Source: an uncultured Erythrobacter sp. (GTDB taxonomy: Bacteria; Pseudomonadota; Alphaproteobacteria; Sphingomonadales; Sphingomonadaceae). Taken from it: a stretch of DNA of 64,000 bases. A model generated the notes under the pieces. It did no database searches. It was not told where the DNA came from and worked only from the letters and a program-made list of their open reading frames with translations. Numbering within the stretch: position 1 is the first letter of the stretch; each line of letters opens with the position of its first letter. Below, one piece after another: positions 6,097 through 53,293 of the stretch. Location: positions 2,220,566-2,284,565 of the forward strand of contig CANLPY010000001.1 of the NCBI GenBank assembly GCA_947493165.1, read 5' to 3'. The position numbers and the translations under genes are program-made.

Positions 6097-6140
6097 CGTT
6101 CCGGATCGTCCCACCTGTTCTCGGCCGTTCCAGACATTTT

Positions 6141-30397: not shown

Positions 30398-30447
30398 TTG
30401 CGATAATCGGGGAGGACAGAGGGACTTGAATTGTGTGAGGCCTGCCC

Positions 30448-34235: not shown

Positions 34236-36662
34236 TTATCCCAAGGCGTCGAGAAGGTCAGCTGTGTCGAAGTTTAGCAGAAACTGCGCATACGATGACT
34301 TGAATAGGTCCGAGACGTAATCGGCCAGCTGAACGTCGCTGCGACTATGCTCATTGCCCTTCGTCAATTCGTAGCTGCGCGATTTGGTCGTCGCGAAGAG
34401 AAAAAGCGTATGGAAATAGACGGCACTGATATACCTGCGCTCAGCCAGCTCACTCGCTTCGGTAGATTTTGCTCCGCCTCTGAAGTCTTTCAAAACTTTG
34501 CTGTCGATATTGACGATGATCTCAGAGAGCTTGTCGTCGTCGAGCACAGGGTAGACCACTTCAGAATAGTCCATCCCGACACCCAAAGCCTCAATTTCGT
34601 CCCACGATTTGACACCATCACCGCCTTCCTTGGAGCAAAGCACAAGCTCTGGGATCCCAAGCGGTGGAGGCGCGTCGTCTTTTTTGCGCGGCGGCTTGCG
34701 GTCCGGGTCTGAGATTTTCACCAAGACCGTTTCTGTGAGAGGCCCTCGGGGCGACGATAGACTTGCCGTCATTTCGACAGCATCACCGACTTGCATTTCT
34801 TTGGAAGCACGTAGCCCGATCTTGATCGTTCCATCTTTTGGGCTGGAACGCGAGATATCGATTTCATCGCCATCACCACCCGGTAGAGGATCTGGATTAT
34901 CTCCTCTCCCTCCTTCGCCTGGCTTCGCCAAGCTGATAGTCAACGAGCCTGGATCATCGCTGCGATCAAAATACTCGTTTTCGACGTCGGTCGCGAAGGC
35001 GATTGTCCGTGTGCCGCCTTTGGGCAGTTTGAAGAGTTTCAAACCGCCCTTTCCATCCTTCCCGCCCTTAACGTTGAAGGCAGAAGGATATCGTTTTGGA
35101 TCGAAGGGTGGGGCCGCGCGCGGCTCGCTGTCCTTTCGCTTTTCATCCTTTTTGGGTTTGGCCTTCGCATCGCCCGGCTTGGCCTCTGGCAGGTCGAAAG
35201 TCTGACGCAAAATCTGCGTGAGAGCATCGTTCATCGGAAGATTGCGCGTCACCTCGCGCAGCATCTTTCCTGTATCCTCGCTATCCAGACTGAGGTTGGC
35301 TTTTCGACTCTTCGCAATATCGCTGAGCTCACTGTCTGCCAGCAATTTGCGCAAATGCGCTCGCAGGGCATCGGAGGTCGCACTATTTTTTAGGCGATCA
35401 CGCGAGGCCATAAATAGCTCGTTGCGCACCCCGAGATGGAGCTGGGTGCAGTCAACTTGGATAAGAATGTAGTCCTTCAGCAGCGGCATCTTCAGGCTGC
35501 GGGTAATGAACTCGGACGTAAAGCTGCCATGCACCTGGCCATTGAGTGCGAACATCACCGACATGTCGTTCTTAAAATACTCGCGACGAATGTAAGCCTT
35601 CGTCTCTTTAACCCCCTTGCCGCGGGAGCGCGGGCTGAAGACATAGACGGTGAGCACGAGCTTACCGAATTCTTTGCTCGTATCCTCCAGCGAGAACTGC
35701 GCTTCGATTGTGCGGTCATCGCCCTCTAGCCGGCGTTTCAAGCCAGCTACGACAGTCACTGGGTTTACGTTATCAGGATAGCGCTCATTGTTGTCGACCG
35801 TGAGGAACGGCAGCGCAGGCTCGAAAAGGTATTCGTTAAGGCTGAGGTTGAGATCGCGTGAGATGATTGAACGCGCGCCGCGCGGTAGCTCGTAGGAGTA
35901 TAGCTTAACGAAGGAGCCCGTCTTGAACATGCGCTCTTCAAGACCAAGATCAAGTTCATCGATTTCAACGCTCGGTATCTCGCCATCAATGACGAGATAC
36001 TCGTACCAAGTGTTCTTGCGGTTGGCTGCGTCGACCAGATGTGGTGGATGCTGGCGTAGCAAGGTAAAGCCGAGAGGCTTCGAACCATCATAGCGCTTGC
36101 TCGCGATGAGCTGATAACGTTTCGTTCCGCAGAAGACGACTGCGCCTGAGCCGCCCATATTGTACTTTCCTTGTACGAAATGAACATCGTTCTTGTTGCC
36201 GCGAAGGAGCGAGAGAAAGGTGGTCGGAAAGTCCTCCGGCGCCTGGCCGACACCGTCGTCATAGATAAGAAGCGAAGTGTCTTTGCGCGGCCCGCTGGCC
36301 ACGATCTGTAAATCGCGGGCCCGCTCGCGCCGAACTTGTCCAATGTCCCAGTTTTTGTGATTGGGAAAATATCGGTCCAGAGCTTCTGCAATGCTTTGAG
36401 GTGCCTCGGACGAGCGTGGATCGATACCGTCTTCGAGAACCTTCTTTTCAAGAATAGCGTCGATTCCGTTGGTTACCTTCTCGACTAACGCTGGCACTGG
36501 GTTGGCTTGCTGGTTTTCGACCACGCCATAGAAGGCCTCGTTGTCACCATAGGGGCGCCAATACTCAGCTTTTTCAGTCAGCAAGTACTTCTTTAGGATC
36601 CTGTCGACATCATCTTCGCACGATGCCGCAAGAAATTCATCAAAAAGCTGTTTCGCCTGCAA
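34236..36662 (-). CDS. GHKL (Hsp90-like) ATPase protein, 808 aa, candidate defence effector/sensor
   Basis: N-box VEKVTNGIDAI, G1 LIYDDGVGQAPEDF, G2 KYNMGGSGAVVF. Confidence 0.8.
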   Translation of the reverse strand: MQAKQLFDEFLAASCEDDVDRILKKYLLTEKAEYWRPYGDNEAFYGVVENQQANPVPALVEKVTNGIDAILEKKVLEDGIDPRSSEAPQSIAEALDRYFPNHKNWDIGQVRRERARDLQIVASGPRKDTSLLIYDDGVGQAPEDFPTTFLSLLRGNKNDVHFVQGKYNMGGSGAVVFCGTKRYQLIASKRYDGSKPLGFTLLRQHPPHLVDAANRKNTWYEYLVIDGEIPSVEIDELDLGLEERMFKTGSFVKLYSYELPRGARSIISRDLNLSLNEYLFEPALPFLTVDNNERYPDNVNPVTVVAGLKRRLEGDDRTIEAQFSLEDTSKEFGKLVLTVYVFSPRSRGKGVKETKAYIRREYFKNDMSVMFALNGQVHGSFTSEFITRSLKMPLLKDYILIQVDCTQLHLGVRNELFMASRDRLKNSATSDALRAHLRKLLADSELSDIAKSRKANLSLDSEDTGKMLREVTRNLPMNDALTQILRQTFDLPEAKPGDAKAKPKKDEKRKDSEPRAAPPFDPKRYPSAFNVKGGKDGKGGLKLFKLPKGGTRTIAFATDVENEYFDRSDDPGSLTISLAKPGEGGRGDNPDPLPGGDGDEIDISRSSPKDGTIKIGLRASKEMQVGDAVEMTASLSSPRGPLTETVLVKISDPDRKPPRKKDDAPPPLGIPELVLCSKEGGDGVKSWDEIEALGVGMDYSEVVYPVLDDDKLSEIIVNIDSKVLKDFRGGAKSTEASELAERRYISAVYFHTLFLFATTKSRSYELTKGNEHSRSDVQLADYVSDLFKSSYAQFLLNFDTADLLDALG

Positions 36663-36809: not shown

Positions 36810-39218
36810 TTGCGTTTTCGGGTTACAGCTCGCACTATGCTGCATCTTGGGTCGGAACTCATTAGTTCCGATGCTATCGCTTTCTACGAGCTCATCAAAA
36901 ACGCTCTGGATGCTCGATCGACAGCAATTACGGTCGATATTCTCCAGCGTTTGCCATTCGAGATTTATGACGAGATCATTCGCGAACTGGGCGAGGATCG
37001 AGAGACACCTGCCAGGATCCGTGAGCGCTTCATTCAGGAACTCGGCGATAAACGTCGCGACTGGGAAGAGTTAAAACAGTATGCGATGGCCAACCTCGTT
37101 GAGGGTTCACCGAAATTAAATAAGTTTCGCGAGAAGCTCAAACGCAGTCGGAGCCGCGCTCGCTTCCTCGATAACTTGAGGCACGCAAACCTCATCGAGA
37201 TCGACGACAATGGGCATGGTATGTCACTCGAAATCTTGGAGGATGTGTATCTGACCATCGGCACCCGGTATCGTGCCAATGAACGCGAAGCCCAAAGTGA
37301 ATCTGACGATCAAGTGATCCTTGGCGAGAAAGGTATCGGGCGTCTGTCTGCCATGCGGCTCGGTGAAATCCTCGAGGTGATTACCGGTGAAGACGGCAAA
37401 GACCATTGGAACCAGCTCGAGGTCGATTGGAACGATTTTGCGGACGCTCAGGAAGACGATCTCTCAAGCGTTGAAATTGAAGCAGGCTTAGGCCGGGAAA
37501 AGGACGAGGATGAGTACGGTACTCGTCTTCGCATTTATGCACTCCGCTCGGAGTGGAGCGTGGAAAAACTTCGGGACCTTGCGGTCAGGCAATTTTCGAA
37601 ACTCACGGACCCGCTGAACGAAGATAGCAGGCTTCCGCTCACCCTTACTTTCAATGGCGAGCCGGTTGAGATACCGCGCTTCGCCGACTTTCTTCTGGAG
37701 CAAGCGCACGGTCACTTTACCGCGTCACTTGAGATCGATGACGACGGCGATGTCGGCGTTCAAGGGCTCATGGAATATCGCTTGCACGATCGGCAGCGTA
37801 CGTTCTCGCTGTCCGCGCTCGAACTCGCGACAATGACCGGTGCGGACGTTGAGACGATCCGCCGGGTGGGCCCATTCGAAGTCGAGATCTATTGGTTCAA
37901 CCGACGCATTCTCACTAAAATCGAAGGGATCGGTACGCTCAAGGTCGTCCGCGAGATTCTGAAGGAGTGGGCGGGCGGTGTCGCAGTCTATCGCGACGGT
38001 TATCGAGTTAACCCATACGGGAGCGCCGACGACGACTGGCTCGATCTTGATCGCGATGCGTTCTCGACCAGTGGTTTCAAGCTCAACCGCGGGCAGATTA
38101 TCGGCGGCGCGAATATCACGTCGCGCGGCAACCCTTTCCTGATTGACCAGACCAATCGCGAAGGCTTGAAAGATAACAGCGAACAACGTGCTTTTCGCGA
38201 TATTCTCGCTGGCATGACGGAGATGTACCGTCTCTACCTTGTCGAAATCGATCGCGACATTGCAGATGCGCGGCGCGAGACCGCGACAACGGCGCTAGAG
38301 CGCTTTCAGGACAAAGATGAGCGCCTGATGGAGCTCATCCCGATGCTCGAAGATGTATTGGGCGATCTTCCCGAGGCGCGCGAGCTCAAGAAGCATTTTG
38401 TCGAGCGGATTGAAGAGCTTCGCACTGCTGCCGATATAATGCAGCAGGTCGGTCGGAGTCAGGCCGAGGAGCGCGGCCGTGTCTTCCATCTGGCCAGCAT
38501 AGGTTTGATGATCGAGTCGCTCGCACACGAGCTTTACCGCGCGACGAGTGCGGGACTTGCAACGATTGCGGATGCTCGGCGCTCCGATAACGAGAGATCG
38601 ACGCAAAGTTCACTGCGCGTGCTGGGATCGCAGCTGCGCACGCTTCAGAAGCGTTTGAAGGTTCTCGATCCGCTATCAACAAATGCGCGGCAGACCAAGG
38701 AGCTCTTCGAACTGGTTTCCTGGGTGGATGAGATTGTCGCTGGCTATGCTCGTCGAAACCAATCGAGAAGTGTCGAGTTCGAGATTTCTGTGCGGCCAAA
38801 GAACGGCAAACTAACCGTCAAGGCCGTGAAGGGCATGTTCGTACAAGTTATCGAGAATCTGCTCGCGAACTCTGTCTTCTGGATTGATGCACAGCATAAG
38901 ATTGATCGAAAAGCCGGTATCGTTGAGGACGATGCTGACAAGCCGATCGGGACAGTGAGCGTCGAGCTCGATCTGCGCACCAATCGTATCACTGTCACTG
39001 ACACGGGTCCTGGAATTCCGGAAGAACGACGCGACCTGGTGTTCGAGCCGTTCTTCAGCACGAAGAAGCAGAAACAAGGCAAGGGGCTCGGCCTCCACAT
39101 TTCGCGAGAGATCGCTGAATATCACGGCGGACAGCTGATTTTGGGGTCTGCCAATGATGACGGCACTATTCACTCGGTTGTTTTCGATTTTGGGGACATT
39201 GCTGTCGATGACGAATAA
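36810..39218 (+). CDS. Two-GHKL-module protein: N-terminal Hsp90-like ATPase plus C-terminal histidine-kinase module
   Basis: N-terminal: LIKNALDA / IDDNGHGM / GEKGIGRLSAMRLG; C-terminal: LIESLAHELYRAT (H-box-like), VIENLLANS, VTDTGPGIPEE, FFSTKKQKQGKGLGLHISREIAEYHGG; TTG start likely. Confidence 0.85.
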   Translation: MRFRVTARTMLHLGSELISSDAIAFYELIKNALDARSTAITVDILQRLPFEIYDEIIRELGEDRETPARIRERFIQELGDKRRDWEELKQYAMANLVEGSPKLNKFREKLKRSRSRARFLDNLRHANLIEIDDNGHGMSLEILEDVYLTIGTRYRANEREAQSESDDQVILGEKGIGRLSAMRLGEILEVITGEDGKDHWNQLEVDWNDFADAQEDDLSSVEIEAGLGREKDEDEYGTRLRIYALRSEWSVEKLRDLAVRQFSKLTDPLNEDSRLPLTLTFNGEPVEIPRFADFLLEQAHGHFTASLEIDDDGDVGVQGLMEYRLHDRQRTFSLSALELATMTGADVETIRRVGPFEVEIYWFNRRILTKIEGIGTLKVVREILKEWAGGVAVYRDGYRVNPYGSADDDWLDLDRDAFSTSGFKLNRGQIIGGANITSRGNPFLIDQTNREGLKDNSEQRAFRDILAGMTEMYRLYLVEIDRDIADARRETATTALERFQDKDERLMELIPMLEDVLGDLPEARELKKHFVERIEELRTAADIMQQVGRSQAEERGRVFHLASIGLMIESLAHELYRATSAGLATIADARRSDNERSTQSSLRVLGSQLRTLQKRLKVLDPLSTNARQTKELFELVSWVDEIVAGYARRNQSRSVEFEISVRPKNGKLTVKAVKGMFVQVIENLLANSVFWIDAQHKIDRKAGIVEDDADKPIGTVSVELDLRTNRITVTDTGPGIPEERRDLVFEPFFSTKKQKQGKGLGLHISREIAEYHGGQLILGSANDDGTIHSVVFDFGDIAVDDE

Positions 39219-41202
39219 AGAAAACGGGGCGGACACGGCGGTTGTCGACACTCCCGAGGCTCAGACTGCGGACCCCGCTAACGAAGCGACCGAGCCGCCG
39301 TTCCCGATCCGGGTAGCCATCATTGATGACGGGGTTGCTGTTCCGTCGTTCGATCTGTTTGATGATCCCTCCGATGCCCAGTCCCTGTTGGAAGGCGCCG
39401 ACGACCTCGACGAGGATCTATCGGCGATCGGGGCTGAGCGCGACGGCGATCCGGCTGTCAATCTGGCGGCACTTATAGAGTCGGGACAGCGTTTGGGATC
39501 TCTCGGTGAGCTCGCCGAGAACTCGGACGCATTTCGCGCGCGTTGGGATGACTATCTATTCCACCGGTCACTCCGTGGAAGCCTCCAAAGCCTTGTCGCT
39601 GAGGTGATCTCTGTCGACCCCTCTCAAGGGCTTCCCGATTTGTCCGTATGCGAGGTAATCTTTCTAGACTACTATCTCGAAGACCCTAGCAAAGGGCCCG
39701 TTCTTGCAGAGGAGATCGCTCGTCAATTAATCGCGCAGCCGGGGCGCTCGGCTCTCCAGCAGATCATACTCATGTCCAATCGCGAGAATGTTGCACGCGA
39801 GCGGCGAACTTTTCGAAAGCAAGCGAATATTCGCGGTGCATCGTTTGCCTTCGTTCCAAAGAAAGAGCTTTCCTCGCGGCGCCAAATTTACAGTCATTTG
39901 GCCGTGTTAGATCGCGCCCGCCCCATGGCGCCCAAGATCGATGCCTATCACGACGCACTTACGAGTGCGGTGAAAGACGGAGCTCGGACATTTCTCGAGC
40001 TGGTCGATGAGCTCGACATCGATGACTACGCCCATCTCCAGAACGTCGCCCTCATGAAAGACGGTGACCCGCTGGGCGAATATATCGCAACACTGTTCGC
40101 CGCCGAGTTGGCGTCGCGCACCGTGGAGGCGGACGAGGTCCGTACCGCTGAGCGCGGCCTCGACAAGACCGAGTTCGAGCGGAAGCCGTTTGCAAGCACG
40201 GAGCCATCTACGATCGTCAAACAACTCTACCATAGCGCTCTGATCTGCAGCAATATGGGAGAACTGGGAGACCATCCCAGGGCTGCCCCTGATAGCGACT
40301 TTGCTGGAATGCCGCTTGTTAGGATGGGAGACCTGTTCTTCTCGTCCGACAAGGAGCGCGTGGTCGCAATTCTCAGCGCCGATTGTGATCTTGCCTTCGC
40401 ACCGAACGAGGACCGTCCTCCAAACCCCGATACCGCCGTGTTGCTTGTCCCGGGGACCACCGAGAAACTTGCCGGAGCAGGAAAGGTCATCGACGCCATC
40501 ACGGAAGGGTTCGTCGACGGCGACGAAGTCTTTCGCATTCATTGGGCGTTCTCCAGCTACCGAAGCGTAGCGCTTAAAGAGCTCAAAGACTATCTCAAGT
40601 GCGATGGCTATGACGTGAAGCGCCGCGATCGGCTGCGCGCGCCGTTCTCGTTCCGTCTTCAGCAGGAGTTTGGGGCTAATTTGTTCAGGGTCGGTGCGCC
40701 AGCAATGCCGCCAATGACGCGCGAAGCATCTGCTTCAATCAAGCTATTTTGCAAAGGCGAGGTACAAGAACAGGTTGATATTGACGACCCGCAGCTGCGC
40801 CTCACTTCATACGGCACCGATACCTGTGTGCGGCTCGGCATCGCGGATACCGAAAAACTGTACAGCTTGTGCGAGACGCTCTCTGCCAATTTTGACGATG
40901 AGATTGTGGAGTTGAGCGAGGGGTTGGCAGACCTCAATGAAGGCCAGAGAAAGGCGTTAGAAAAGAAGATTTTCCCGCTCGAAAAGCAGCGCGCGGCGTT
41001 GGACAAAAAACTCTCTGATGACCTTTTTTGGCACGAACTGCACGGTGACCATCCAATTGCGAGAAAACTCACTGCGCTGCGCGGTATCGCTAAGCTCGTT
41101 CTCGGAGACGAGTGGGATCAGGAGCAGCACAACCAAATTATTCTTCATGTGTATGACCCGGCCAAGCCTGACCCCGGCCAGCAATCTACAGCTGACAAAT
41201 AA
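39208..41202 (+). CDS. Receiver-like protein with large C-terminal region of unknown function
   Basis: RVAIIDDG ... CEVIFLDYYLEDPSKGPVLAEEIA ... IILMSNRENVARER ... FVPKKEL resembles REC DD-D-S/T-K; ATG 39208 overlaps upstream stop by 11 nt. Confidence 0.75.
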   Translation: MTNKENGADTAVVDTPEAQTADPANEATEPPFPIRVAIIDDGVAVPSFDLFDDPSDAQSLLEGADDLDEDLSAIGAERDGDPAVNLAALIESGQRLGSLGELAENSDAFRARWDDYLFHRSLRGSLQSLVAEVISVDPSQGLPDLSVCEVIFLDYYLEDPSKGPVLAEEIARQLIAQPGRSALQQIILMSNRENVARERRTFRKQANIRGASFAFVPKKELSSRRQIYSHLAVLDRARPMAPKIDAYHDALTSAVKDGARTFLELVDELDIDDYAHLQNVALMKDGDPLGEYIATLFAAELASRTVEADEVRTAERGLDKTEFERKPFASTEPSTIVKQLYHSALICSNMGELGDHPRAAPDSDFAGMPLVRMGDLFFSSDKERVVAILSADCDLAFAPNEDRPPNPDTAVLLVPGTTEKLAGAGKVIDAITEGFVDGDEVFRIHWAFSSYRSVALKELKDYLKCDGYDVKRRDRLRAPFSFRLQQEFGANLFRVGAPAMPPMTREASASIKLFCKGEVQEQVDIDDPQLRLTSYGTDTCVRLGIADTEKLYSLCETLSANFDDEIVELSEGLADLNEGQRKALEKKIFPLEKQRAALDKKLSDDLFWHELHGDHPIARKLTALRGIAKLVLGDEWDQEQHNQIILHVYDPAKPDPGQQSTADK

Positions 41203-41983
41203 GACAGCCGCTCTCCTCCACTTCTTCCACGTCATCGCCGAACACTTGGGCTAGGGTAAGGTTTTCACCGCGCTCCTGCTTCCGTTTGCGGCGGCGTTCA
41301 TTCTCGTCCTTGATGGCTTGCATGCGCTCGGGCTGCTCAAGTTCCGCCAGGCTTTCGCGTTCGCTCCATGTGAAAGTGTTCCCACTGCCCTCGAACGGCT
41401 TCTCGTAGGCCTTGGCTTTCTCAAACAAATCAGGATGTGTTTCTTTCAATCGCACCCATTCGATCTTTTGCTGGTAAAAGCAGAAGAAACAGCCTGACCG
41501 CGTGCGACCCCATTCGGTGTAGGGCGGCAAGCCGATACCCGAACTCATCAGGATCTCGCGGATGTCCGCCAGCTTCAACCCATCTTCTTGGAAAGGATAG
41601 ACGGCCGTAATGTTGGGCTTGTGGCTGATATAGCCTGAACGGTTCTCGTCGGCGCGCAAGCCCACATAATTGACCACCGGATCGTCGCCGACAAACTCCT
41701 CGAATGGCTTGAGCTTGAGCATCTTGGTGCACCAGCGCCGGTGGTTGGAGGGGATCATGCCGCCGTAGACATCGTACCAATGATCGAAGCCTAGTTCTGC
41801 ATTGAGGCGATGAACCCGTTTGCCCAGATAATCTTCGATGCGCTCGAGGTATTCGTAAGTCTCGGGGATCTCTTTACGGGTGTCGGAGAAGATATATTCC
41901 ATGTCCGGCACGCGGTCGCGCATGTAGATGGCCAGTGCCGCGGAATCCTTGCCGCCGGAAAGGCTCAGAATGTGGCGTGTCAT
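41186..41983 (-). CDS. sspD: PAPS-reductase/ATP-pyrophosphatase family protein (DndC/SspD-like)
   Basis: ILSLSGGKDSAALAIYMRD PP-loop; RSGCFFCFYQQKIEW; last in apparent operon. Confidence 0.82.
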   Translation of the reverse strand: MTRHILSLSGGKDSAALAIYMRDRVPDMEYIFSDTRKEIPETYEYLERIEDYLGKRVHRLNAELGFDHWYDVYGGMIPSNHRRWCTKMLKLKPFEEFVGDDPVVNYVGLRADENRSGYISHKPNITAVYPFQEDGLKLADIREILMSSGIGLPPYTEWGRTRSGCFFCFYQQKIEWVRLKETHPDLFEKAKAYEKPFEGSGNTFTWSERESLAELEQPERMQAIKDENERRRKRKQERGENLTLAQVFGDDVEEVEESGCLICQL

Positions 41984-44900
41984 TGAGCGTCCTCTTTGTT
42001 TTTGTCCGCCAGCATGGACTGCAAAACCTTAATCAGCACCGCTTCGGGCCGGTCTACACCGGCAAGAAGTTTGCGAAGCTTGGTCGCTGTCTTCTCATCC
42101 GCCTCACTGACTTCGTGGAGGAAATAGGCACGGTCAGCTCCGCCGGACGTGGTTATATGGATCGCGGTGATCGGTGTCGTTCCCGCCGCCTCCTTACGCA
42201 GAATAGCAAGCCTTCTTGCAAGTTCCTGTGCAACGGCATTCACTTCGAACCCGAACTGGTCGAGATGGGTGTCGTCCCAGCCTTCCAGACGCTTTCCGAC
42301 AAGCAGGCTCGCCACCCGGTCTAGCCAAAGCGCCTCGGTAAGGTCTTGGTTCATCGCCCGCTCGACGAAGGCTTTGAGCTTGTAGTCGCCCAGCTTCGCC
42401 AGATGATCTTCGTAGTCCGAGCGCAATTGCTCGCGAAGCTTCTTCAAGGAGCGCGCACCGAAAGCCGACCTGATGTGTTCGGAGGCTCGAATGCGAAGGC
42501 GTGGCAGCGCCTCTTCGAGTTCGCACAATGCCGCATCGAAAGTCTCAATGAAGTGATCGTCGTCAATCCCGGGTTCGTCGACCGCATTGCATGCCTGAGG
42601 GAGCGAAAGGAATACGAACTGGATCGGGTCGCGCGCCTTTTTCAAAGCAAGTCTAACGGACTTCGCGATCCCGCTCACTTCGTTTGTGGTACGAGCGTAA
42701 GCATTGAGATCGCGCCACCAAACGAATATCCGCTCGACCACTGGCTTAAGCTCGGGTTCTGGCCGGTCAGTAGCGAAGATTGAAAGCTCGTTACTCAGTC
42801 GTTGCAGCAGGTCATCATTGTTTTCCGCTGCGACTTTTCGGAGTGCGAAATGCTTTGGGTTCTTCGCAAGCCGCATAAAATGCGCCTGCGACAGCTCGGG
42901 CTGGAAAGTTCCGCGCTCAATCAGGGCGATGGTCGTGCGATGGTGTAGCATGACCGCGGCGATCAGCAACAAAGCAGGCCCCGCACGCAACCCCGTGGGC
43001 GGCTCTGCCAGTTTTTCGATCAGCTCTTCGAAGGAGACTGGATCGTCTGAACGCACCAGGTCTTCGACACGTTTCCAAGCGTGGTGCCAGCCTGGCTCGC
43101 TACTCTTCGCAGGTGGGTGGAAGGCGAGCGTACCTTCTTCTTCCCGGTGCATGCCCGTAGCCTGCAACATCGAGCGGTAAATCGTCTTCTCGGGAGGTGC
43201 GCCCTCCAGGCCCAGTGACTCTTTGCCTTCCTCTTCGATCATCAGCTTCAAGAGGCGCATGCGAGCCGCGGCGATCGCCGTCGACAGCTTGGAGCGATTG
43301 ATAAGCTCGTTGCGCAGCTTCGGCGCCTTTTTAAAAACATCGTCGCAGATTGCGCTCAGTTTGCGGCTCAGTTCCGAGCGGCTCCGGAAAGCCATGGGCG
43401 TTCCGAGATAGAACCAGCTCTCGCCATTCGCATCAAAATCGAACGGCGACAGACGGGATTGGAGCTGCTGCTCTCGTTGAACGATATTGCGCTGCACTTC
43501 ACCTCGCGCGAGATCGTCCATCCGCAGTTCCTTGCAGGCCTCCGCGACCCATCTCCAGCATTTGAGCTCGTGTGATAGGGTTAGATCTGCCTCGGACACC
43601 GGCTTCAAATGAACGAGCGCAAGCGGACCCAAGCGTTCCGAAAGCGCCGTGGCGTGACGCCGGCGGTCTTCGATTTGCTCACCAGGATTTACAGGGATAA
43701 TCGCGATACGGCCATCGATACTATCCGGGAGAACTATTGGCGCTTCTCCGAACGCTGGCAGAAAACTGCGAAGCGTTCCCGCTCGATGATAGTGTCGCTG
43801 TGCAATTACCGGACGAAGCGGGGGTATTGAAGCGATGTCATCATTCAGATGCGATGGCTTGCTGATCGCGCGCTGTGCCTCTGCGTACCAGTGCGATAGA
43901 TCGACACTGCTGTTCGACCACAAGCTATAGTCCCTCGACGACGCACGAGCATAAAGGATACCAGCCCGAGCAAGCTCGGAAAGGGCTTCTTCAACATCAT
44001 CGCATGGGATATCGAGCGCCCATGAAAGCGTGTCTGCGTCACTCCGGAGCCCTGCCAACGGCTCGAGCGCGGCGATGACAGCCACCGATTTCAAAACTCG
44101 TATCTCGACTTTGTCGCCGCAGACCAAGCCCTCGACTGCTTCGCGACCCATGGCCCAGCGGCGATCCCGATCGGCACCGTCGAACCGGAGGCTTCCCAAA
44201 GTGCTCATGTAATCGTAGACTTGGTCGAGCCTATACCACTGGTCTGCCCCATAAGCGGTCGAATGCGCAAATTGCAGATATCCGGCAGGCTCGGAAGACT
44301 GAAGAAAACTGAAGACCGAGCGATCATGCTGGCCGAACCGACTTGCTGCCATCGTCAGGCACGATAGGGCGGCCGGATGCAGTGGATAAAGGTCTCCGCC
44401 CATCCTGACGAGTTCGGCATCATCGATCGCAAAAAGCGAGCGCTTTGCTGCGCTCTCGAAACAGGATTTGGCCGCCTTGCGAACCGCAACTGCATGCTCG
44501 TTTTCTCGCTCGAGTGCATTCGCGACGAGGTAGATCGCCTGCTCGCGTGGCTCGGAAAAGGCAATCTCTTCGTACCGCTCGGCGCTCCGGGCCCACTCCT
44601 GGCTAGTCCAGCCTTCGCTCGAGCCGAGATAATCATCGAAGCGGTGATGGAGAAAGGCGACTACACCTAGTGCCGGATGCGCGCGACCGCTCGCGCGTTC
44701 TGCCAATTGCTGAAAGAGTGCCGGATCTTCGCTGCGCGGGTGAGCCGCAGCGTATTCGAGATAGCGGCCCATCTCATCGACCAGCACCAAGAGACTGCGT
44801 CCGTCCGCTTCCGCAATCGCCGCACCGAGACGCGTCAAATGGGAGAGCACCGCCTTGGTCGATATTGTGTTCGCGTTATCCGCGCTGCGCAGTTGTCCGC

Positions 44901-45327
44901 ACTGCGATGCAATTTCACTATCTTCGCCAAAAAGCGCAGAGGCTTTCTCGCCAACCGCATTGAGCAAGTCGCGCGCCAGGCTGGTCCGACTTCCGGTGAG
45001 GACTAGAATCTCGCAGTCGGGCAGTCCGCTCTTCCCCAGAACGGGCGAGATTATTTCTTCCGCTTTCCAAGCGGCATCTCCGGCGAGCTTGGCGAGCAGC
45101 AATCCAAATGACGATTTGCCCGAGCCATAGGGGCCGGTGATCCTAAAGGCTCTTTGCGTTGAACTCTTCGAAAGCCCTGTCGACAAGCGCATGAGAGCCT
45201 CACGCGCTCGGGAGGTGAGAATATAGCCCTCAAGCGACGCAGGATCGGTCAGATCGCGTTCGATATCGACAGCCCGCACATAGCGCGGGTGAACCTGGAT
45301 GCGATCGGCAATTAGCGTGCGGGCCAT
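41980..45327 (-). CDS. sspC: Large P-loop ATPase (SspC-like by context)
   Basis: FRITGPYGSGKSSFGLLLAKLAG Walker A; SLLVLVDEMGRYLEYAA Walker B; ATGA overlap with sspD-like gene. Confidence 0.75.
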   Translation of the reverse strand: MARTLIADRIQVHPRYVRAVDIERDLTDPASLEGYILTSRAREALMRLSTGLSKSSTQRAFRITGPYGSGKSSFGLLLAKLAGDAAWKAEEIISPVLGKSGLPDCEILVLTGSRTSLARDLLNAVGEKASALFGEDSEIASQCGQLRSADNANTISTKAVLSHLTRLGAAIAEADGRSLLVLVDEMGRYLEYAAAHPRSEDPALFQQLAERASGRAHPALGVVAFLHHRFDDYLGSSEGWTSQEWARSAERYEEIAFSEPREQAIYLVANALERENEHAVAVRKAAKSCFESAAKRSLFAIDDAELVRMGGDLYPLHPAALSCLTMAASRFGQHDRSVFSFLQSSEPAGYLQFAHSTAYGADQWYRLDQVYDYMSTLGSLRFDGADRDRRWAMGREAVEGLVCGDKVEIRVLKSVAVIAALEPLAGLRSDADTLSWALDIPCDDVEEALSELARAGILYARASSRDYSLWSNSSVDLSHWYAEAQRAISKPSHLNDDIASIPPLRPVIAQRHYHRAGTLRSFLPAFGEAPIVLPDSIDGRIAIIPVNPGEQIEDRRRHATALSERLGPLALVHLKPVSEADLTLSHELKCWRWVAEACKELRMDDLARGEVQRNIVQREQQLQSRLSPFDFDANGESWFYLGTPMAFRSRSELSRKLSAICDDVFKKAPKLRNELINRSKLSTAIAAARMRLLKLMIEEEGKESLGLEGAPPEKTIYRSMLQATGMHREEEGTLAFHPPAKSSEPGWHHAWKRVEDLVRSDDPVSFEELIEKLAEPPTGLRAGPALLLIAAVMLHHRTTIALIERGTFQPELSQAHFMRLAKNPKHFALRKVAAENNDDLLQRLSNELSIFATDRPEPELKPVVERIFVWWRDLNAYARTTNEVSGIAKSVRLALKKARDPIQFVFLSLPQACNAVDEPGIDDDHFIETFDAALCELEEALPRLRIRASEHIRSAFGARSLKKLREQLRSDYEDHLAKLGDYKLKAFVERAMNQDLTEALWLDRVASLLVGKRLEGWDDTHLDQFGFEVNAVAQELARRLAILRKEAAGTTPITAIHITTSGGADRAYFLHEVSEADEKTATKLRKLLAGVDRPEAVLIKVLQSMLADKNKEDAQ

Positions 45328-46256
45328 GCAAGCGCCTCCAGTTCTTCAAAGTGCTTGTCATCTGGCGAAATCAGCGCCTTTCCCCCGGCGCCGTCGCTTT
45401 CCAGCTCCATACTCGTATTGTGAGCCACTTCTTCCACGAGGATTTGCAAACTGCCTTCATCCAGTCTGAATGCTGCAGCCGGCCCGCGTTTGTCCAATTG
45501 CAGCGTTCGAAGCGAAAGCTGCTGGGACGAAGCGCCGGTGCCGGCCCAGTAGTCGCGAAGCGCAAATGCGAAATCTCCCAAGCGAAGATCAGACTTCGGC
45601 CCGCGGTTGAGACTAACGATGGTTCCTCCGCTCGATTGAGTGGTTTCGAGCAGTTTCAACTCCTGAAACGGCGAGCCTGCGCCTTCTTCGGCTGCGGATA
45701 GCGTGTCGCCGCGCGACCAGTCGTAGGTGCGAAGAAAAATATCGACATGAACGCTAGCCGTACTGGCCGAGATAGCGCCTTTCGTTGCTGCCGCGCCGGC
45801 TTCGACAAGACCAATGAGGTGCTCACGCGTGATCCGCGCATCGAACACGTCCTGCAATGCGATCACCCACGCCCCCAGGCCGCCATGAGCCGCAATCTGC
45901 CAATGCAGTCGCCACAGCGTGCCATTGTCTTCCAGATAGGGGTCAATACCCTTCGTGGGATGCATCAGGCGATGCGCAAGATCGGTGTTGAGCGTCTGGC
46001 CTGATGCGGTTCGCGTCAGTCCAAAAGTCTGCCCCCAGAAACGGATAGACTTGACCATGTTGCGCCCGAGACCAAGCGCCAAAATCGCGCCTTCATCGTT
46101 CGCGAAGAGTTTCGGATTCTCCTCCAACGCTTGGTAGAGCTTGACGAGCCATCCATATCGACACGCAAAGGATTCATGCCCTGAGAAAAGGCGCGATTTG
46201 CCTTCATCAAGAGACCACGGCGTTTGATCTGACACCAGTGTTTCTGTTTTGCTCAT
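45312..46256 (-). CDS. sspB: DUF4007-family protein (SspB-like)
   Basis: SRLFSGHESFACRYGWLVKLYQAL, LALGLGRNMVKSIRFWGQTFGL, LWRLHWQIAAHGG. Confidence 0.82.
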   Translation of the reverse strand: MSKTETLVSDQTPWSLDEGKSRLFSGHESFACRYGWLVKLYQALEENPKLFANDEGAILALGLGRNMVKSIRFWGQTFGLTRTASGQTLNTDLAHRLMHPTKGIDPYLEDNGTLWRLHWQIAAHGGLGAWVIALQDVFDARITREHLIGLVEAGAAATKGAISASTASVHVDIFLRTYDWSRGDTLSAAEEGAGSPFQELKLLETTQSSGGTIVSLNRGPKSDLRLGDFAFALRDYWAGTGASSQQLSLRTLQLDKRGPAAAFRLDEGSLQILVEEVAHNTSMELESDGAGGKALISPDDKHFEELEALAWPAR

Positions 46257-47383
46257 GACTTCTCCAGCAAGCGTGAAATCGCATTGGCGATGAGGTCCGC
46301 TGCCTCATCTATTTCGGATTCGAGGCTCATTCTCCCAAAGCCGATCCGTACCGCCGTATTCAGCCGAGCTTCCGGCAGGCCCATAGCGGCGAGCACTATG
46401 GACTTGCCGATCGCCCCGGAACTGCAGGCCGAACCCGTAGCAAGCGCCAGTTGAGGCAACAAGGCCAGTAGCGCATCGGCATCGACTTCATTGAAACTCA
46501 GATTGAGGTTATGCGGAATGCGCTCCGAAGCATTCCCGTTGATCGCAATGCGGACGTCACGCGACCCGAGCCGCTCAAGAAATCGGTCCGTGAGATCCGC
46601 GCAGCGATCCCAGTCGTGAACCCGCTCGGCTATCGCGAGCTCTGCCGCCCGTCCGAACCCAACGGCAAGCGCGGTCGGAACGGTGCCTGGAAACATTCCG
46701 CCCTGTTGTCCGCCACCTGTGACAAGTGGAGTCATTCTTTCGATCATGTCGGGCGAAGCGCAGATTGCTCCGATGCCCTGTGGACCATAAGCCTTATGGC
46801 CGGATAAAGTGATAATGGCGTCAGGCCCGAGCCCATCGATGGGAATACGACCAAGAGCCTGCGCGGCATCGGTATGAAAGATGATACCCTGAGCGTTACA
46901 AAACTCTGCCAACTCGACAATCGGCTGTATGGTTCCAACCTCGTTGTTGACTGCCATAACCGATACAAACGACGCACCGGCGATGAGATCGTAGGCCGCA
47001 TCGAGATTTATTACGCCTTCTTCCGTAACCGGAAGGATATCCAGGGACGCGCCCATAGCTTCGCACCATTTGGCAGTTTCCATCACGCAAGGGTGCTCGA
47101 TAGCGCTCACAGCAATGCGCGCATCAGTTCCAGCAAAGCTTCTTAAAACCTGGTTGCAAGCGAAGGTTGCGCTGGGCGTAAATATGATGCCCTCTGCAGT
47201 CTTGCCAGTTGCGCTGGCGATCTGAGCCCGTGCCTGGTCCACTGCTCTTTCTGCCGCCAAACCTGCCTCGTGTTGCACCGAGTGTGAATTGGCAGGCGCT
47301 CTGAACCAAGGCAGCATCACTTCGAGCACCCGCGCATCCATCGGTGTCGTCGCTTGGAAATCAAGAAAAATGGGCAAGTTCAT
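46253..47383 (-). CDS. sspA: Cysteine desulfurase (SspA/DndA/IscS-like)
   Basis: Lys site LSGHKAYGPQGIGAI, catalytic Cys loop ATGSACSSG, FLDFQATTPMD. Confidence 0.9.
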   Translation of the reverse strand: MNLPIFLDFQATTPMDARVLEVMLPWFRAPANSHSVQHEAGLAAERAVDQARAQIASATGKTAEGIIFTPSATFACNQVLRSFAGTDARIAVSAIEHPCVMETAKWCEAMGASLDILPVTEEGVINLDAAYDLIAGASFVSVMAVNNEVGTIQPIVELAEFCNAQGIIFHTDAAQALGRIPIDGLGPDAIITLSGHKAYGPQGIGAICASPDMIERMTPLVTGGGQQGGMFPGTVPTALAVGFGRAAELAIAERVHDWDRCADLTDRFLERLGSRDVRIAINGNASERIPHNLNLSFNEVDADALLALLPQLALATGSACSSGAIGKSIVLAAMGLPEARLNTAVRIGFGRMSLESEIDEAADLIANAISRLLEKS

Positions 47384-47842: not shown

Positions 47843-48478
47843 TCATAAAGCCCTCCCAAACCATATGACGCGGCCGATCACCTCAACTCCTTCACGATCC
47901 ACATCATTCCACGAAGGATAGGCGGGGTTGTCACTGGAAATCGTAATCTGCTTTGCGCCCGGCTTGATGGCGATGCGCTTTACAACCAGCGTGTCGTCAG
48001 AGCGCAGCACATAGATTCCATCCCGCAGTCTGGAGCCATGGTCGGACGCATCGACGAGAACCTCATCGCCATCGCTAAGCGTGGGCTCCATGGAATCCCC
48101 CAGGACACTGACGATTGAAAGACTTGCGCCCTTGGCGCCGGTCAATCTCCTGAGCCATTTCTCGTCAAAGCCAAAGCGCGTGTAGCTGGTCTCATTAGAT
48201 GCAATAGCGCCGAATCCGGCTGAGGCATCCACGTCCAAAACGGGAACTTCGATCATTCCGTCCATTGGTGTTTGAGCAGGACCACCGAGCCTTTGTTCAT
48301 CGACGCCAAAGAAGCTTGCAAGTGTCTTGCGATCCTCGGGGTCGAGGACACGCGGCGATCCGCGCTTTATGAATTGCTGGATATAGCTTGGATTGCGTCC
48401 AAGCAGCCTTGAAACCGCTGCGTAGCCGTATCCGCCTTTGGTGATCAGCCGCTCAAGTTCCTCTCTAATATGTTCCAT
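47843..48478 (-). CDS. HTH / S24-peptidase (CI/LexA-like) repressor
   Basis: YAAVSRLLGRNPSYIQQFIKRG HTH; SVLGDSMEPTLSDGDEVLVD and VVKRIAIKPG S24 catalytic motifs. Confidence 0.9.
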   Translation of the reverse strand: MEHIREELERLITKGGYGYAAVSRLLGRNPSYIQQFIKRGSPRVLDPEDRKTLASFFGVDEQRLGGPAQTPMDGMIEVPVLDVDASAGFGAIASNETSYTRFGFDEKWLRRLTGAKGASLSIVSVLGDSMEPTLSDGDEVLVDASDHGSRLRDGIYVLRSDDTLVVKRIAIKPGAKQITISSDNPAYPSWNDVDREGVEVIGRVIWFGRAL

Positions 48479-49143: not shown

Positions 49144-51846
49144 CTACCATTCCTTCACATCGTCCGCCGCTTTGGCAGACGCGCCTCGTGCGTCTCGTGT
49201 AGTCCGCTCAAGCTTCCCTCTTCTTTGCTCGATGCTTCGAAAGCCTTCGCTTTGCCTCTGACTAACGTCGCCTGCGATCTCATCTCTGGCATCTGACGGA
49301 TCTTCGAGCGAGCTCGGTAAGCCGCCGAAGCGAACCGAACTGCGCACCCCGCCTGCGCTTCCAACATTAGGCCGCGCCACTGGCGTTGCATCAGGTAGGA
49401 CTAGTTCGCTCGCGATCTCGTCATTGAAGCCATCAGCGTAGCTTTCCACAAAACGGGATTGCAGTTGTTGCCCTTGCGCGCTCATTTGGAAGTCGATGTC
49501 ATCAAAGCGTGCTTGGCCGTAATAATCCCGATTGGCATCGATCTCAGCCATGCCCCATTCGCGGTAGGCTTGGCTTAGATTCAAGGTTCCGGCTGCATTG
49601 GTGCTTTCATACCAGCTGGCCTGGCTCTCCAACCGATTGGCTATCTCTTCAGCCCGCCGTGCTTCGAGCGTGTAGCTTTGCGCTTCAGTCAGTGAGGTTG
49701 TGACACCGGCGGCGCTGCTCGAGACAAGCGCTTCTGAGCTTGAACTCGTTTCGCGCAAGAAACCTTCTCTCGAGTTTGACCAGTTCTGGCTTTCTGAAAT
49801 TTGGCTCAATGCACCTTCGATGCGTGAACGATCTTCCGAGGCGATCCCGATATCGCTGTCGGTCCAGGTCTGGTTCCTTCCGCCACTCAGACCGAGTGAA
49901 CCACGCGTACCCTTTCGTTCTACTCTTCCCTCGGCCCCCGCGTTTCCATTCAGGAACCATGAGACCGTGATGTCGTCCGACGCCCGGCGTGATAGGCCAA
50001 ATTGCTGCTGGAGTGTGTTCGATGCATTATCGAGTTCACTGAAGGTTCTGCCAATGCTGTCATTGCTTGATGTTCCGCTGACCGTCTCATTCGAGCGCGA
50101 CCGGGTGTAAGCATCGCGCAGTTCGCTGAATCGCGTAACCGCCGAGCTCGTCGATTGCTGAGCGAGATTTGAGAAGGTCTCGCTCTGGCTGCGGCTCTCG
50201 CTCGCCATGGTCGAGAGGCGGCTGGAAAAATCTTGCCCAAGCGTCGGTGTGAAGGGATAGCTCGAAGTCGGGACATTTGCGAACTCGGCTTGCGGGAAGC
50301 TGGTTGTCTGGGTGCCGTTCTCGCCAATACCTCGTGTTTGGGCGGCGCCATGAGCGATATTTGGCGCGAGGCTGCCTTGCGCAAATTGCCGAGAGAACAC
50401 GCTCGAATTATCGAGATTGGTGTTGCCGAGCGAGACGTTGCCTGTGCTCGCTTCGCGCGCTGCCTCTTCTGCGGCGTTTTGACTAGGGTTGAGATAACTG
50501 GTCGCTTGACCCGAAATGGCCATCGCGCCGCGCGCAACCCCGCCTGCAAGGAAGGGAATCGAGGCGACAAGATATCCAGCGAGAATGCCGATATCATTGT
50601 TGACGTCGGTCATGCCTGAAAAGGTTGCAAGGCTTAGACCGCTTGAGCCGCTTGCTGCCGCAACATCGCCTGCGCCTTTCAGCATCAAGATCATGTGGAG
50701 GATGACGAAGAGCGGTCCCCAGGCAGCAAGGTAGAAAAAGCCGGTGACATAGCCTCTCAGCGCAATCGGCCCGGTCCTTGGCATGAGAAAAAGCGGGAAG
50801 AGAACAGGAAAGAGCGCATAGAATACCACCGTCAGCACGACATTGAGGATCGGCACCCATTTCATCGCGTTATGCGCGATCGAAGAATAGGTGCGTTCGG
50901 TCTGAATATCGGCTCGGGTCTGGGCAAACACATCAACACTTGAAGCGCCGCTTGATCCGGCAAAGCCATGCATGGCCTGATTCATCGCGTTGATCGTCAG
51001 CACTTGGCGAAAGATGCTGCTCGCATCCTTCGAAATGCCTGTCAGATATTGGTAAGCGACGGGTAAGTCTGCGATGAGCTTGGCCTTGGCTAGCGCTTCG
51101 GTTTGCCTCGGATAGAGCTGGCGGCCGGCAACAAGCGTCATCTCATCGATCATGCTCGCCCATTGACCAGAGAGGCTTGTGTAGGCCTCACGGCAGGTGA
51201 CGATATTCGCTGTCACGCTGTCATCACCTTGGCGGGTCAGGAACTTCTGCGCACGCGCCGGGCTTCCCGGCGCTATCGTGGCCCAGATGTCATCGCTTTC
51301 TGAGAGCTCTTTCATCGAATAGCGGCCAAGCAGCAGATCGTAGAACACGCATTGGCGCACATGCTCATCAAAGTTCGCTGCAAATTCAGGATCAGCGATG
51401 CGCAGGCTCCGCGTCGCTTCGAGGAGGCGCGCGCCATAGATCATACCGTTTTTCGAATAATTGAGATCATCGGGGAGACCGAACACGGTCTCAGCCGAAC
51501 GCGTTAGATAATCGCCAATTTGGCTGGTGAAGCTCGCCATAAGCGCAAGGCCTAGTGGGACATTGGCGACTGTTGCAGGAGCCAGGCTGGGATTGACGCG
51601 GTCTGTCACTTGCACATCCATGCGCGGCACCATCAGGCACATATAGATGAGTGTCGCTCCCAGGAACCAGTTGAGCCAAGCGCGCCAATTCTGATTGAAT
51701 GCAACGACTATAACCGCCAGCGTCATAGCCATAACGAGCGCCACCTGAATCAGGCTCTTATAGCCTCCGGCACCCGTCCAAGCGGCTACGGCGTTCAGGA
51801 CATTGACGATGTATTCGCCGCCGCCCGTGGTGAAGATCTCAACCAT
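49144..51846 (-). CDS. traG: F-type conjugation protein TraG (mating pair stabilisation)
   Basis: 900 aa; N-terminal membrane segments, long Ser/Gln-rich C-terminus; first of the tra cluster as oriented. Confidence 0.88.
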   Translation of the reverse strand: MVEIFTTGGGEYIVNVLNAVAAWTGAGGYKSLIQVALVMAMTLAVIVVAFNQNWRAWLNWFLGATLIYMCLMVPRMDVQVTDRVNPSLAPATVANVPLGLALMASFTSQIGDYLTRSAETVFGLPDDLNYSKNGMIYGARLLEATRSLRIADPEFAANFDEHVRQCVFYDLLLGRYSMKELSESDDIWATIAPGSPARAQKFLTRQGDDSVTANIVTCREAYTSLSGQWASMIDEMTLVAGRQLYPRQTEALAKAKLIADLPVAYQYLTGISKDASSIFRQVLTINAMNQAMHGFAGSSGASSVDVFAQTRADIQTERTYSSIAHNAMKWVPILNVVLTVVFYALFPVLFPLFLMPRTGPIALRGYVTGFFYLAAWGPLFVILHMILMLKGAGDVAAASGSSGLSLATFSGMTDVNNDIGILAGYLVASIPFLAGGVARGAMAISGQATSYLNPSQNAAEEAAREASTGNVSLGNTNLDNSSVFSRQFAQGSLAPNIAHGAAQTRGIGENGTQTTSFPQAEFANVPTSSYPFTPTLGQDFSSRLSTMASESRSQSETFSNLAQQSTSSAVTRFSELRDAYTRSRSNETVSGTSSNDSIGRTFSELDNASNTLQQQFGLSRRASDDITVSWFLNGNAGAEGRVERKGTRGSLGLSGGRNQTWTDSDIGIASEDRSRIEGALSQISESQNWSNSREGFLRETSSSSEALVSSSAAGVTTSLTEAQSYTLEARRAEEIANRLESQASWYESTNAAGTLNLSQAYREWGMAEIDANRDYYGQARFDDIDFQMSAQGQQLQSRFVESYADGFNDEIASELVLPDATPVARPNVGSAGGVRSSVRFGGLPSSLEDPSDARDEIAGDVSQRQSEGFRSIEQRRGKLERTTRDARGASAKAADDVKEW

Positions 51847-51856
51847 TGCCTTTGCC

Positions 51857-53293
51857 TCAGGGCACTATCGAGCGCGATTGCAGGCCGCGCGACCAGTCGA
51901 GCGCAGCCGACATGGACGGTGACATCGACGCGGCGAGCGCGTTTTCGATCATCGCTGTCTTCTCGATGATCTGCATGATCGCAGAGACTTTGGCTTGGCC
52001 TGTCGCTTGCCGCTGGATGAGACTGCTACGCACTTCGGTCACTTGTCCGCGCCAGATCGCCAACTTGGCTTCGTCCGCAGCAATAAAGCTCGCCATCGAA
52101 CGGCCAGCTTCCGAGACGATCCGGTCAAGGATTGCAAAGAGCAGGTCGACGCTTGCAATCTCAGCCAGCGTGTCGCGGTCATCGGTCGGCATGCCGCGCC
52201 CATAGGCGGCTTGGACAGTTAGTATCTTGTAGAGCGGGATCGAGGCGACCTGAAGCAGCTCCTTTTCGGCATTCCCGATGGCCGTGTCTGTCCGGATCGC
52301 ATCGACCATATTGCCAATGAGCTGCGCCACGCGTGGTCGGATCGCCTTGGCGTTTGACAGGCTCATCTGCTGGAAGGTGGGATTGAGGCAGAGATCGATT
52401 TCATCGCAGCGGAACACGCGCACGCTTTGGCCTTGGGTTCCATCAAGCAGCGCGCTCACCAGCGTCGAAGACGCATCGCCAGCGAAGGGCACAAACTTGC
52501 CCGGCTCGTCATCCTTGGGCGGGACGTAGATAACCGTGCCGATCAGCGTCATGGCGTATTCGGCGAGCTCGCGGTCGAAAGTGCCGCTGGGGTTGAAGAA
52601 GGCGCTCTCTTTAAGGACGTGCCAGGTGTAGTTGCGCGCTACGCCGGGATTGACGTCTGCATAGTCACTACCGGCGCTTTCATTGGTTGAAGCGCGCTGG
52701 CCTCGCGTGCCGCAGCCATGCTTGGCAGCGGCATAGTCGGTGAAGATGCCTTCAGAATTCCCGATCGCTTCGCAGATCGCTTTGTCGGCCAAATCGCCTT
52801 TGGGCCAGAGCCCTCCCACCAGCCCCTGCGCCATCTCACAGGAGTTGATCGAGAGATTGTTCATGAGCTGAGCCTTTTGGCTAAACTCCTGCATGATCTT
52901 ATTACATTCAGGGCAGACGGTATCGATCGCCAGACTGAAGGCGAAGCCGACTGCATTGTTGGCCACTGCCTTCATCAGCGCGACCATCTCGCTTGCATTG
53001 ATAAAGGAAAAGGAGCCGGCAAAGATATCGATCCCGCCGCACCCCGCACGCGCTCTTGGCAATTGCAGATTGGCGATATTGGTCGTCTTTTGCGGAAATC
53101 GCGTCCAAACATTGCCCAGACTATAGTAGCCTGCGGACTGGCCTTCGAAGGCGGTCGGACCAGTGACGTTCGCCGCCGCGCCCATATCATCCATGAAACG
53201 GTCCATGCTGTCGCCGACATTTGCGGCAACAGGCGCTGCGACCATGCTGGCCGCGGCAATGGTGAGCGCTGCATTGCGGATGCTAGTAATCAT
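51857..53293 (-). CDS. traH: F-type conjugation protein TraH
   Basis: MITSIRNAALTIAAASMVAAPVAANVGDSMDRFMDDM signal; PRARAGCGGIDIFAGSFSFINASEMV; start trimmed to Met at 53293. Confidence 0.9.
   Translation of the reverse strand: MITSIRNAALTIAAASMVAAPVAANVGDSMDRFMDDMGAAANVTGPTAFEGQSAGYYSLGNVWTRFPQKTTNIANLQLPRARAGCGGIDIFAGSFSFINASEMVALMKAVANNAVGFAFSLAIDTVCPECNKIMQEFSQKAQLMNNLSINSCEMAQGLVGGLWPKGDLADKAICEAIGNSEGIFTDYAAAKHGCGTRGQRASTNESAGSDYADVNPGVARNYTWHVLKESAFFNPSGTFDRELAEYAMTLIGTVIYVPPKDDEPGKFVPFAGDASSTLVSALLDGTQGQSVRVFRCDEIDLCLNPTFQQMSLSNAKAIRPRVAQLIGNMVDAIRTDTAIGNAEKELLQVASIPLYKILTVQAAYGRGMPTDDRDTLAEIASVDLLFAILDRIVSEAGRSMASFIAADEAKLAIWRGQVTEVRSSLIQRQATGQAKVSAIMQIIEKTAMIENALAASMSPSMSAALDWSRGLQSRSIVP

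What the first reader, a model, noticed from the sequence alone, without database searches (positions are those of the whole stretch)
41186..47383. SspABCD-type DNA phosphorothioation operon on a conjugative element
Seen: four minus-strand genes with start/stop overlaps (46253/46256, 45312/45327, 41980/41983) encode a cysteine desulfurase (ATGSACSSG), a DUF4007 protein, a 1115-aa P-loop ATPase and a PP-loop PAPS-reductase-like protein. Established: this set matches the single-strand phosphorothioation module SspA-SspB(DUF4007)-SspC-SspD rather than DndABCDE, since no DndB/DndE-like ORF is visible. Carriage on a self-transmissible element would spread backbone modification horizontally.
Basis: partly seen in the sequence, partly recalled or inferred. 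Interest (0 to 1): 0.75.

Follow-up and report, generated by a model that had tools for sequence, protein, structure and literature searches.

The report
Ssp DNA-sulfur operon with unstudied partners
A mobile element in this bacterium carries genes that put sulfur into the DNA backbone (a known phage-defence mark), next to a signalling kinase, its partner and a third ATPase that keep turning up beside this operon in very distant bacteria, so they are probably missing working parts of the defence system.

Summary
The genome has no SspE and no SspFGH, the known restriction partners. Beside sspD sit a paraMORC-type histidine kinase (HK), a receiver-domain response regulator (RR) and a divergent MORC/Hsp90-like ATPase. 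The HK-RR pair is a dedicated partner: in species genomes, 37 of 43 HKs of this clade have sspBCD within about 10 kb, against 0 of 37 more distant HKs (p=8e-17). It spans several phyla, sits inside the operon between sspC and sspD in some, and changes at least 10 times on the SspC tree. Phosphorelay residues are conserved in 53 pairs. The third ATPase's close clade is next to sspBCD in 8 of 9 cases. The general kind (HEF_HK/Response_reg_2 pairs near methylation R-M systems) was described in 2021, and one 2025 paper notes a two-component system near ssp in A. baumannii. This is a new variant of Ssp, in which a phosphorelay probably controls or executes restriction. No function was tested.

The parts
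46253..47383 (-). sspA, cysteine desulfurase (376 aa)
   Evidence: PADLOC SspA 344 bits, DndA 337; Aminotran_5; solved IscS, DndA and SspA relatives; ATGSACSSG motif visible
45312..46256 (-). sspB, DUF4007 protein (314 aa)
   Evidence: PADLOC SspB 242 bits; DUF4007 183 bits; PDB 6juf SspB E 8e-32
41980..45327 (-). sspC, P-loop ATPase (1115 aa)
   Evidence: PADLOC SspC 790 bits against BrxC 306; SspC tree
41186..41983 (-). sspD, PP-loop PAPS-reductase-like protein (265 aa)
   Evidence: PADLOC SspD 388.5 bits against DndC 18.5; convergent 17-nt overlap with the RR gene
39154..41202 (+). RR: receiver domain plus conserved C-terminal GD...CDL domain (682 aa from the first ATG; likelier start near 39208). 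Candidate output protein
   Evidence: no Pfam or PADLOC family; D58, D59, D172, S/T208, K236, G392, C411, D412, R512 kept in 52-53 of 53; receiver-like fold; related by profile to RRs of other paraMORC-HKs
36810..39218 (+). HK: soluble hybrid, N-terminal HATPase_c_3 (paraMORC-like) plus histidine kinase core (802 aa, TTG start)
   Evidence: HATPase_c_3 60 bits, HATPase_c 80 bits; H573, N683, D731, G733, G735, G759, G761 invariant in 53 of 53; linked to sspBCD
34236..36662 (-). H808: MORC/Hsp90-like GHKL ATPase with Ig-like and helical C-terminal parts (808 aa), divergent from HK
   Evidence: weak HATPase_c_3; fold match to Hsp90, GyrB, Morc3 at E 3e-9 to 1e-7; 46-67% identical copies on plasmids, next to ssp
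47843..48478 (-). HTH plus S24 peptidase (LexA/CI-type) repressor upstream of sspA, possible regulator
   Evidence: Peptidase_S24 63 bits; role inferred from position only
5940..7410 (+). tRNA-Leu (5940-6026), attachment repeat (6054-6095) and tyrosine integrase (6193-7410): left end of the element
27956..33357 (+). TraD coupling protein (27956-30397) and TraI/TrwC MobF relaxase (30448-33357)
49144..63941 (-). F-type mating-pair formation genes (TraG, TraH, TraF, TraN, TrbC, TraU, TraC, DsbC), continuing past the window as TrbI/TraB, TraK, TraE, TraL

Best explanation
This is an SspABCD phosphorothioation (PT) module whose restriction side is not SspE or SspFGH but a phosphorelay pair (HK-RR), helped by a MORC-like ATPase (H808). 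SspA-D mark host DNA with single-strand PT. The soluble HK carries a paraMORC-type GHKL clamp in place of a membrane sensor; it probably detects a DNA state linked to missing marks or infection and autophosphorylates at H573. The phosphate passes to D172 of the RR, whose conserved C-terminal domain, alone or through SspBCD/H808, then acts against unmarked DNA. Shown here: gene identity, absence of SspE/FGH, linkage, and conservation of the phosphorelay residues. Inferred: the PT mark itself, the signal, the phosphotransfer and the output. Not known: whether the RR is the effector itself or a switch.
For: SspA-D identity. Own genome has no DUF262 protein, the N-terminal fold of SspE, and SspH finds only one FtsK-like 809-aa frame. 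Linkage in species genomes: 37 of 43 close HKs with sspBCD, 0 of 37 distant HKs (Fisher p 8e-17). Of the six without, two have sspF/G(/H) in range, one (L022) lies beside PT-restriction PbeA/PbeC genes, two are short contigs and one is a real exception (L052). A separate sample of 301 genomes of the order, chosen by HK alone, gave 3 of 3 intact close HKs (besides the window) with sspABCD, one of them (G828) in the window's arrangement with H808. All 8 RR-bearing plasmids have the pair beside ssp or sspFGH genes. In L003, L019 and L057 the pair lies between sspC and sspD. At least 10 changes of HK presence on the SspC tree. Catalytic residues in 53 pairs. No other widely recurrent effector in HK-bearing loci that lack FGH. 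paraMORC ATPases and HEF_HK pairs are found around restriction-modification systems (PMC2292703, PMC8011034).
Against: No experiment. The RR C-terminal domain has no match, so its activity is unknown. About a third of close HK loci (13 of 43 in the species genomes) also carry sspFGH genes, so there the pair cannot be the only effector. In an unselected survey 0 of 10 other SspB-bearing Pseudomonadota had the pair, so it is a minority type. H808 relatives also occur alone and in phage contigs. HK was the search key, so rates in the other direction are lower: 16 of 67 SspC-bearing plasmid records.
Confidence: 0.55

Rival explanations
1. HK-RR is a regulator, not an effector: it tunes expression or activity of SspBCD (how much PT is laid down), and the real nuclease is encoded elsewhere or lacking.
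For: Classical two-component systems regulate. The pair coexists with sspFGH genes in 13 of 43 close HK loci. PMC12421847 suggests either a new variant or an epigenetic role in A. baumannii. A repressor-like S24 gene also lies upstream of sspA.
Against: No known DNA-binding domain was found in the RR by Pfam or by structure search. In several loci the pair lies within the operon it would regulate.
Confidence: 0.25
2. HK-RR and/or H808 are independent defence systems that merely share defence islands with ssp.
For: H808 relatives occur without ssp, two of them next to genes that look like C5 methyltransferases, and in phage contigs. Two clade loci (L011, G724) have H808 but no HK-RR.
Against: For HK-RR: 37 of 43 against 0 of 37 linkage, immediate adjacency and insertion inside the operon in several lineages. 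For H808: 8 of 9 in its close clade are beside sspBCD.
Confidence: 0.12
3. An orphan SspABCD that only marks DNA (gene regulation or oxidative stress), with the neighbours non-functional.
For: Most sspBCD loci (2,211 of 2,678) lack sspE and sspFGH (PMC8092258).
Against: All three neighbours are intact open frames, HK and RR with conserved catalytic residues, and they recur beside ssp.
Confidence: 0.08

Closest known systems
SspABCD-SspE and SspABCD-SspFGH PT defence systems (PMC9646914, PMC8092258)
   Same: Same four modification genes, same order, high scores on the PADLOC models
   Different: No SspE and no SspFGH in this genome; HK, RR and H808 stand beside the operon instead and have no dedicated PADLOC models
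HEF_HK / Response_reg_2 two-component-like pairs with paraMORC ATPase domain (PMC8011034)
   Same: HATPase_c_3 + kinase core + adjacent receiver protein next to DNA-modification genes; one relative (L034) passes the HEF_HK cut-off
   Different: Window HK has no HEF_HK match and the RR no Response_reg_2 match; linked to phosphorothioation, not C5 methylation; that paper's main text has no hit for DUF4007, phosphoadenosine, PAPS or BREX
Two-component system beside ssp in A. baumannii global clone 2 (PMC12421847)
   Same: L017 (A. baumannii) carries the same HK-RR beside sspBCD, with no SspE-like gene found in the stretch
   Different: That paper mentions it in one sentence as a possibility; no family, distribution, residues or H808 in the passages found
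MORC / paraMORC ATPases of R-M systems (PMC2292703)
   Same: H808 folds as GHKL plus S5 like Morc3, Hsp90, GyrB
   Different: Distinct family without a Pfam hit over cut-off, with a clade tied to sspBCD
BREX type 4 (PMC12839542)
   Same: Homologous ATPase, DUF4007 and PAPS-reductase parts
   Different: BREX models score far lower here; no PglZ or BrxL among the scanned neighbours; SspB and SspD not fused

Membership tests
SspABCD modification module | SspA, B, C, D homologues in one operon | tested here: met
   overlaps
SspABCD modification module | single-strand PT in host DNA at a specific motif | not testable with these tools
   needs LC-MS/MS or PT-seq
SspABCD-SspE system | SspE (DUF262 + DUF1524) | tested here: not met
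   no PF03235 match in the own genome; the same search rings in 8 of 14 control genomes
SspABCD-SspFGH system | SspF, G, H | tested here: not met
   SspH model hits only one 809-aa FtsK-like frame in the own genome; no F/G/H in the window plus 19 kb
Dnd system | DndC, D, E (B) | tested here: not met
   sspD scores 18.5 bits as DndC against 388.5 as SspD; no DndB, D or E hit among the nine proteins scanned; not every window ORF was scanned
BREX type 4 | PglZ, BrxL, BrxP (often fused to DUF4007) | tested here: not met
   BrxP 44 bits only, DUF4007 separate, no PglZ/BrxL among scanned neighbours
HEF_HK / Response_reg_2 pair | HATPase_c_3 + HEF_HK + HATPase_c in the kinase | tested here: inconclusive
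   window HK: both HATPase domains, no HEF_HK; L034 HK 24.2 bits (cut-off 24.1), L043 20.6
HEF_HK / Response_reg_2 pair | Response_reg_2 domain in the regulator | tested here: not met
   no match in window RR or relatives; profile link to broader RRs, one of which scores 25.2 against cut-off 27
Two-component phosphorelay | H, N, G1, F, G2 boxes and receiver DD, D, T/S, K | tested here: met
   53 HK and 53 RR sequences
Two-component phosphorelay | autophosphorylation and transfer to the receiver | not testable with these tools
   needs a kinase assay
GHKL (MORC/Hsp90-type) ATPase, H808 | GHKL fold with ATP-site motifs and S5 domain | tested here: met
   model confidence moderate (pLDDT 70)
Integrative conjugative element | integrase, att repeats, relaxase, coupling protein, T4SS | tested here: met
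   transfer not tested

The most novel reading that the evidence does not exclude
A PT-based immune system run by a phosphorelay: a MORC-type kinase reads DNA marking status and, through His-Asp phosphotransfer, switches on a response regulator whose uncharacterised C-terminal domain is itself the antiviral effector, with H808 as a second, MORC-like restriction ATPase.
Probability: 0.3. Interest if true: 0.82.

Novelty: new variant of a known kind. Interest (0 to 1): 0.62.

Why it matters
More than four fifths of sequenced sspBCD loci have no known restriction partner (PMC8092258), an open question in the field. This locus offers two concrete candidates with distribution, residues and test constructs. 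It also ties part of a large, functionally unassigned group of paraMORC-kinase/regulator pairs to a chemically defined DNA mark, so their signal can be tested by switching PT on and off. The pair is also present beside the ssp genes of the one A. baumannii record examined (L017).

Tried and rejected
DndABCDE and BREX type 4 rejected on scores and missing parts. SspE and SspFGH sought in the whole genome and not found. RR C-terminal domain: no Pfam, PADLOC, PDB-sequence or significant fold match; a MazF/PemK-like barrel was considered by eye only and not tested. A third recurrent neighbour was sought by clustering: apart from mobile-element genes, only a small methyltransferase with an adjacent gene in about six loci, absent in the window. 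First search for the right attachment site with the tRNA 3' end failed; the repeat lies just downstream of the tRNA. H808 as a strictly Ssp-specific protein rejected: distant relatives are alone or in phages.
Full report
OBSERVATION. PADLOC places them as SspA, SspB, SspC and SspD, with Dnd and BREX models far behind except for the desulfurase, which scores similarly as DndA. Pfam finds Aminotran_5, DUF4007 and PAPS_reduct over cut-off. SspB matches the solved SspB 6juf, and SspA matches IscS, DndA and SspA structures. The catalytic motifs of SspA, SspC and SspD are readable in the translations.

CARRIER. The window lies in a 2.97-Mb genome. A tRNA-Leu at 5940-6026 is followed by a 42-bp sequence repeated exactly 90.8 kb downstream, at 96829-96870 in window numbering. 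Between them lie a tyrosine integrase, an ArdC antirestriction gene, MobF/TraI, TraD and F-type transfer genes. This is an integrative conjugative element by gene content; transfer was not tested.

WHAT IS MISSING. The known Ssp restriction partners are SspE and SspFGH. SspE has a DUF262 N-terminal domain (PMC9646914), and no DUF262 protein was found in this genome. The SspH model hits only one 809-aa FtsK-like reading frame. In PMC8092258, 2,211 of 2,678 sspBCD loci had neither partner.

WHAT IS THERE INSTEAD. Convergent with sspD, overlapping it by 17 nt, are two plus-strand genes: an 802-aa kinase without a recognised membrane sensor domain, with an N-terminal HATPase_c_3 and a C-terminal HATPase_c domain (HK), and a 682-aa protein without any database match (RR). 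Divergent from HK is an 808-aa protein (H808).

LINKAGE OF HK-RR. tblastn with the RR gave 8 plasmid records; in all of them the same pair lies beside sspABCD/sspBCD or sspFGH, including the Chloroflexota plasmid of Candidatus Chlorohelix, where the pair sits between sspC and sspD (L009 by our own profile search because the record has no annotation). A scan of species genomes with the HK alignment gave 80 loci, which fall into two groups by profile score. Of 43 close HKs, 37 have sspB/C/D within about 10 kb, and 41 have the RR gene. Of 37 distant HKs none has sspBCD (Fisher p 8e-17). The six close HKs without sspBCD are two with sspF/G(/H), two on short contigs, L022 beside PbeA and PbeC (a PT-linked restriction set), and L052, a genuine exception next to a TniQ gene. 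An independent search of 301 genomes of the same order with the HK gave, besides the window, three intact close HKs, all beside sspABCD, one broken copy without, and three distant ones without. G828, another genus of the family, repeats the window's arrangement including H808. The pair occurs in Alpha-, Beta- and Gammaproteobacteria, Planctomycetota, Verrucomicrobiota, Chloroflexota and a Magasanikbacteria contig. On a tree of 64 SspC proteins, presence of the pair needs 11 changes, 10 of them forced by well supported branches. The tree is a quick search with some long branches, and the sample was chosen by HK. In an unselected survey, 0 of 10 other SspB-bearing Pseudomonadota genomes had the pair, and on plasmids 16 of 67 SspC-bearing records had it (two of the 16 were not in the printed list, one of them confirmed). 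So it is a minority type.

CHEMISTRY OF THE PAIR. In 53 aligned sequences of each protein, HK keeps H573 (H box), N683, D731/G733/G735 and G759/G761 without exception, and the N-terminal GHKL site (D133, G135, G137, K174, G177) as well. RR keeps D58-D59, phospho-acceptor D172, S/T208 and K236 in 52-53 of 53, although RR identity is only about 20%. The model of RR has a receiver-like fold (probability up to 0.99 against DrrB and others, but E about 0.1) and a C-terminal part with no match. That part keeps G392, C411-D412-L413 and R512. Profile comparison shows that it is shared with regulators of the wider paraMORC-kinase group (hhalign probability 99.4).

H808. The model matches Hsp90, GyrB and Morc3 ATPase modules. 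Members close to the window copy (window, Devosia, Ensifer, Hymenobacter, Ponticaulis, Caulobacterales, G724, G828) are beside sspBCD in 8 of 9 cases; the ninth is a phage-like contig. Hymenobacter and G724 have H808 with sspBCD but without HK-RR. Distant relatives are not linked to ssp; two of them (G711, G667) lie near genes that look by eye like C5 methyltransferases.

PRIOR ART. paraMORC ATPases in R-M systems were described in 2008 (PMC2292703). HEF_HK/Response_reg_2 pairs near C5 methylases and Vsr were described in 2021 (PMC8011034). L034 HK just passes the HEF_HK cut-off; the window HK and RR do not match the two Pfam models. PMC12421847 remarks in one sentence on a two-component system near ssp in A. 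baumannii clone 2 without sspE; L017 suggests it is this pair. No held paper was found that describes the pair as an Ssp component across bacteria, but subscription papers and preprints are not held.

MECHANISM. The best reading is that SspABCD marks self DNA and HK-RR, with H808, forms the sensing and restriction side, with phosphotransfer as the switch. Identity, linkage and residue conservation are shown. The mark, the signal, the transfer and the output are inferred. The main rival is a purely regulatory role.

VERDICT. [quoted passage not shown]

Noticed in passing
window 22694-23623: ArdC-type antirestriction protein on the same element that carries the PT module.
   Followed up: no
own contig C1 about 2317436 (window numbering 96871): Right after the right attachment repeat the sequence resembles the first codons of the element's own integrase, with no long integrase frame there: possible remnant of a second or tandem element.
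   Followed up: partly
L208:10822-17067: Outer-membrane efflux protein, RND pump and CusF-like copper protein next to the right end, inside the element: metal-efflux cargo.
   Followed up: partly
L107-L184: Many viral contigs carry distant paraMORC-kinase plus receiver pairs with varied C-terminal parts: a large uncharacterised phage/prophage-borne family.
   Followed up: partly
L022:4733-14262: An HK-RR pair of this clade beside PbeA and PbeC/DndD-like genes and no sspBCD in range: the pair may serve other PT systems too.
   Followed up: partly
L005, L007, L009, L025, L026, L029, L042: A ~200-aa SAM methyltransferase, often with an adjacent unknown gene, recurs near sspA in some HK-RR loci; absent in the window.
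   Followed up: no
L011:16433-18311: In Hymenobacter, sspBCD is next to a DUF262 protein and a SIR2-family protein with H808 beyond: another possible effector set.
   Followed up: no
window 33466-34176: 236-aa minus-strand ORF next to H808 with only a sub-threshold peptidase match; nature unknown.
   Followed up: no
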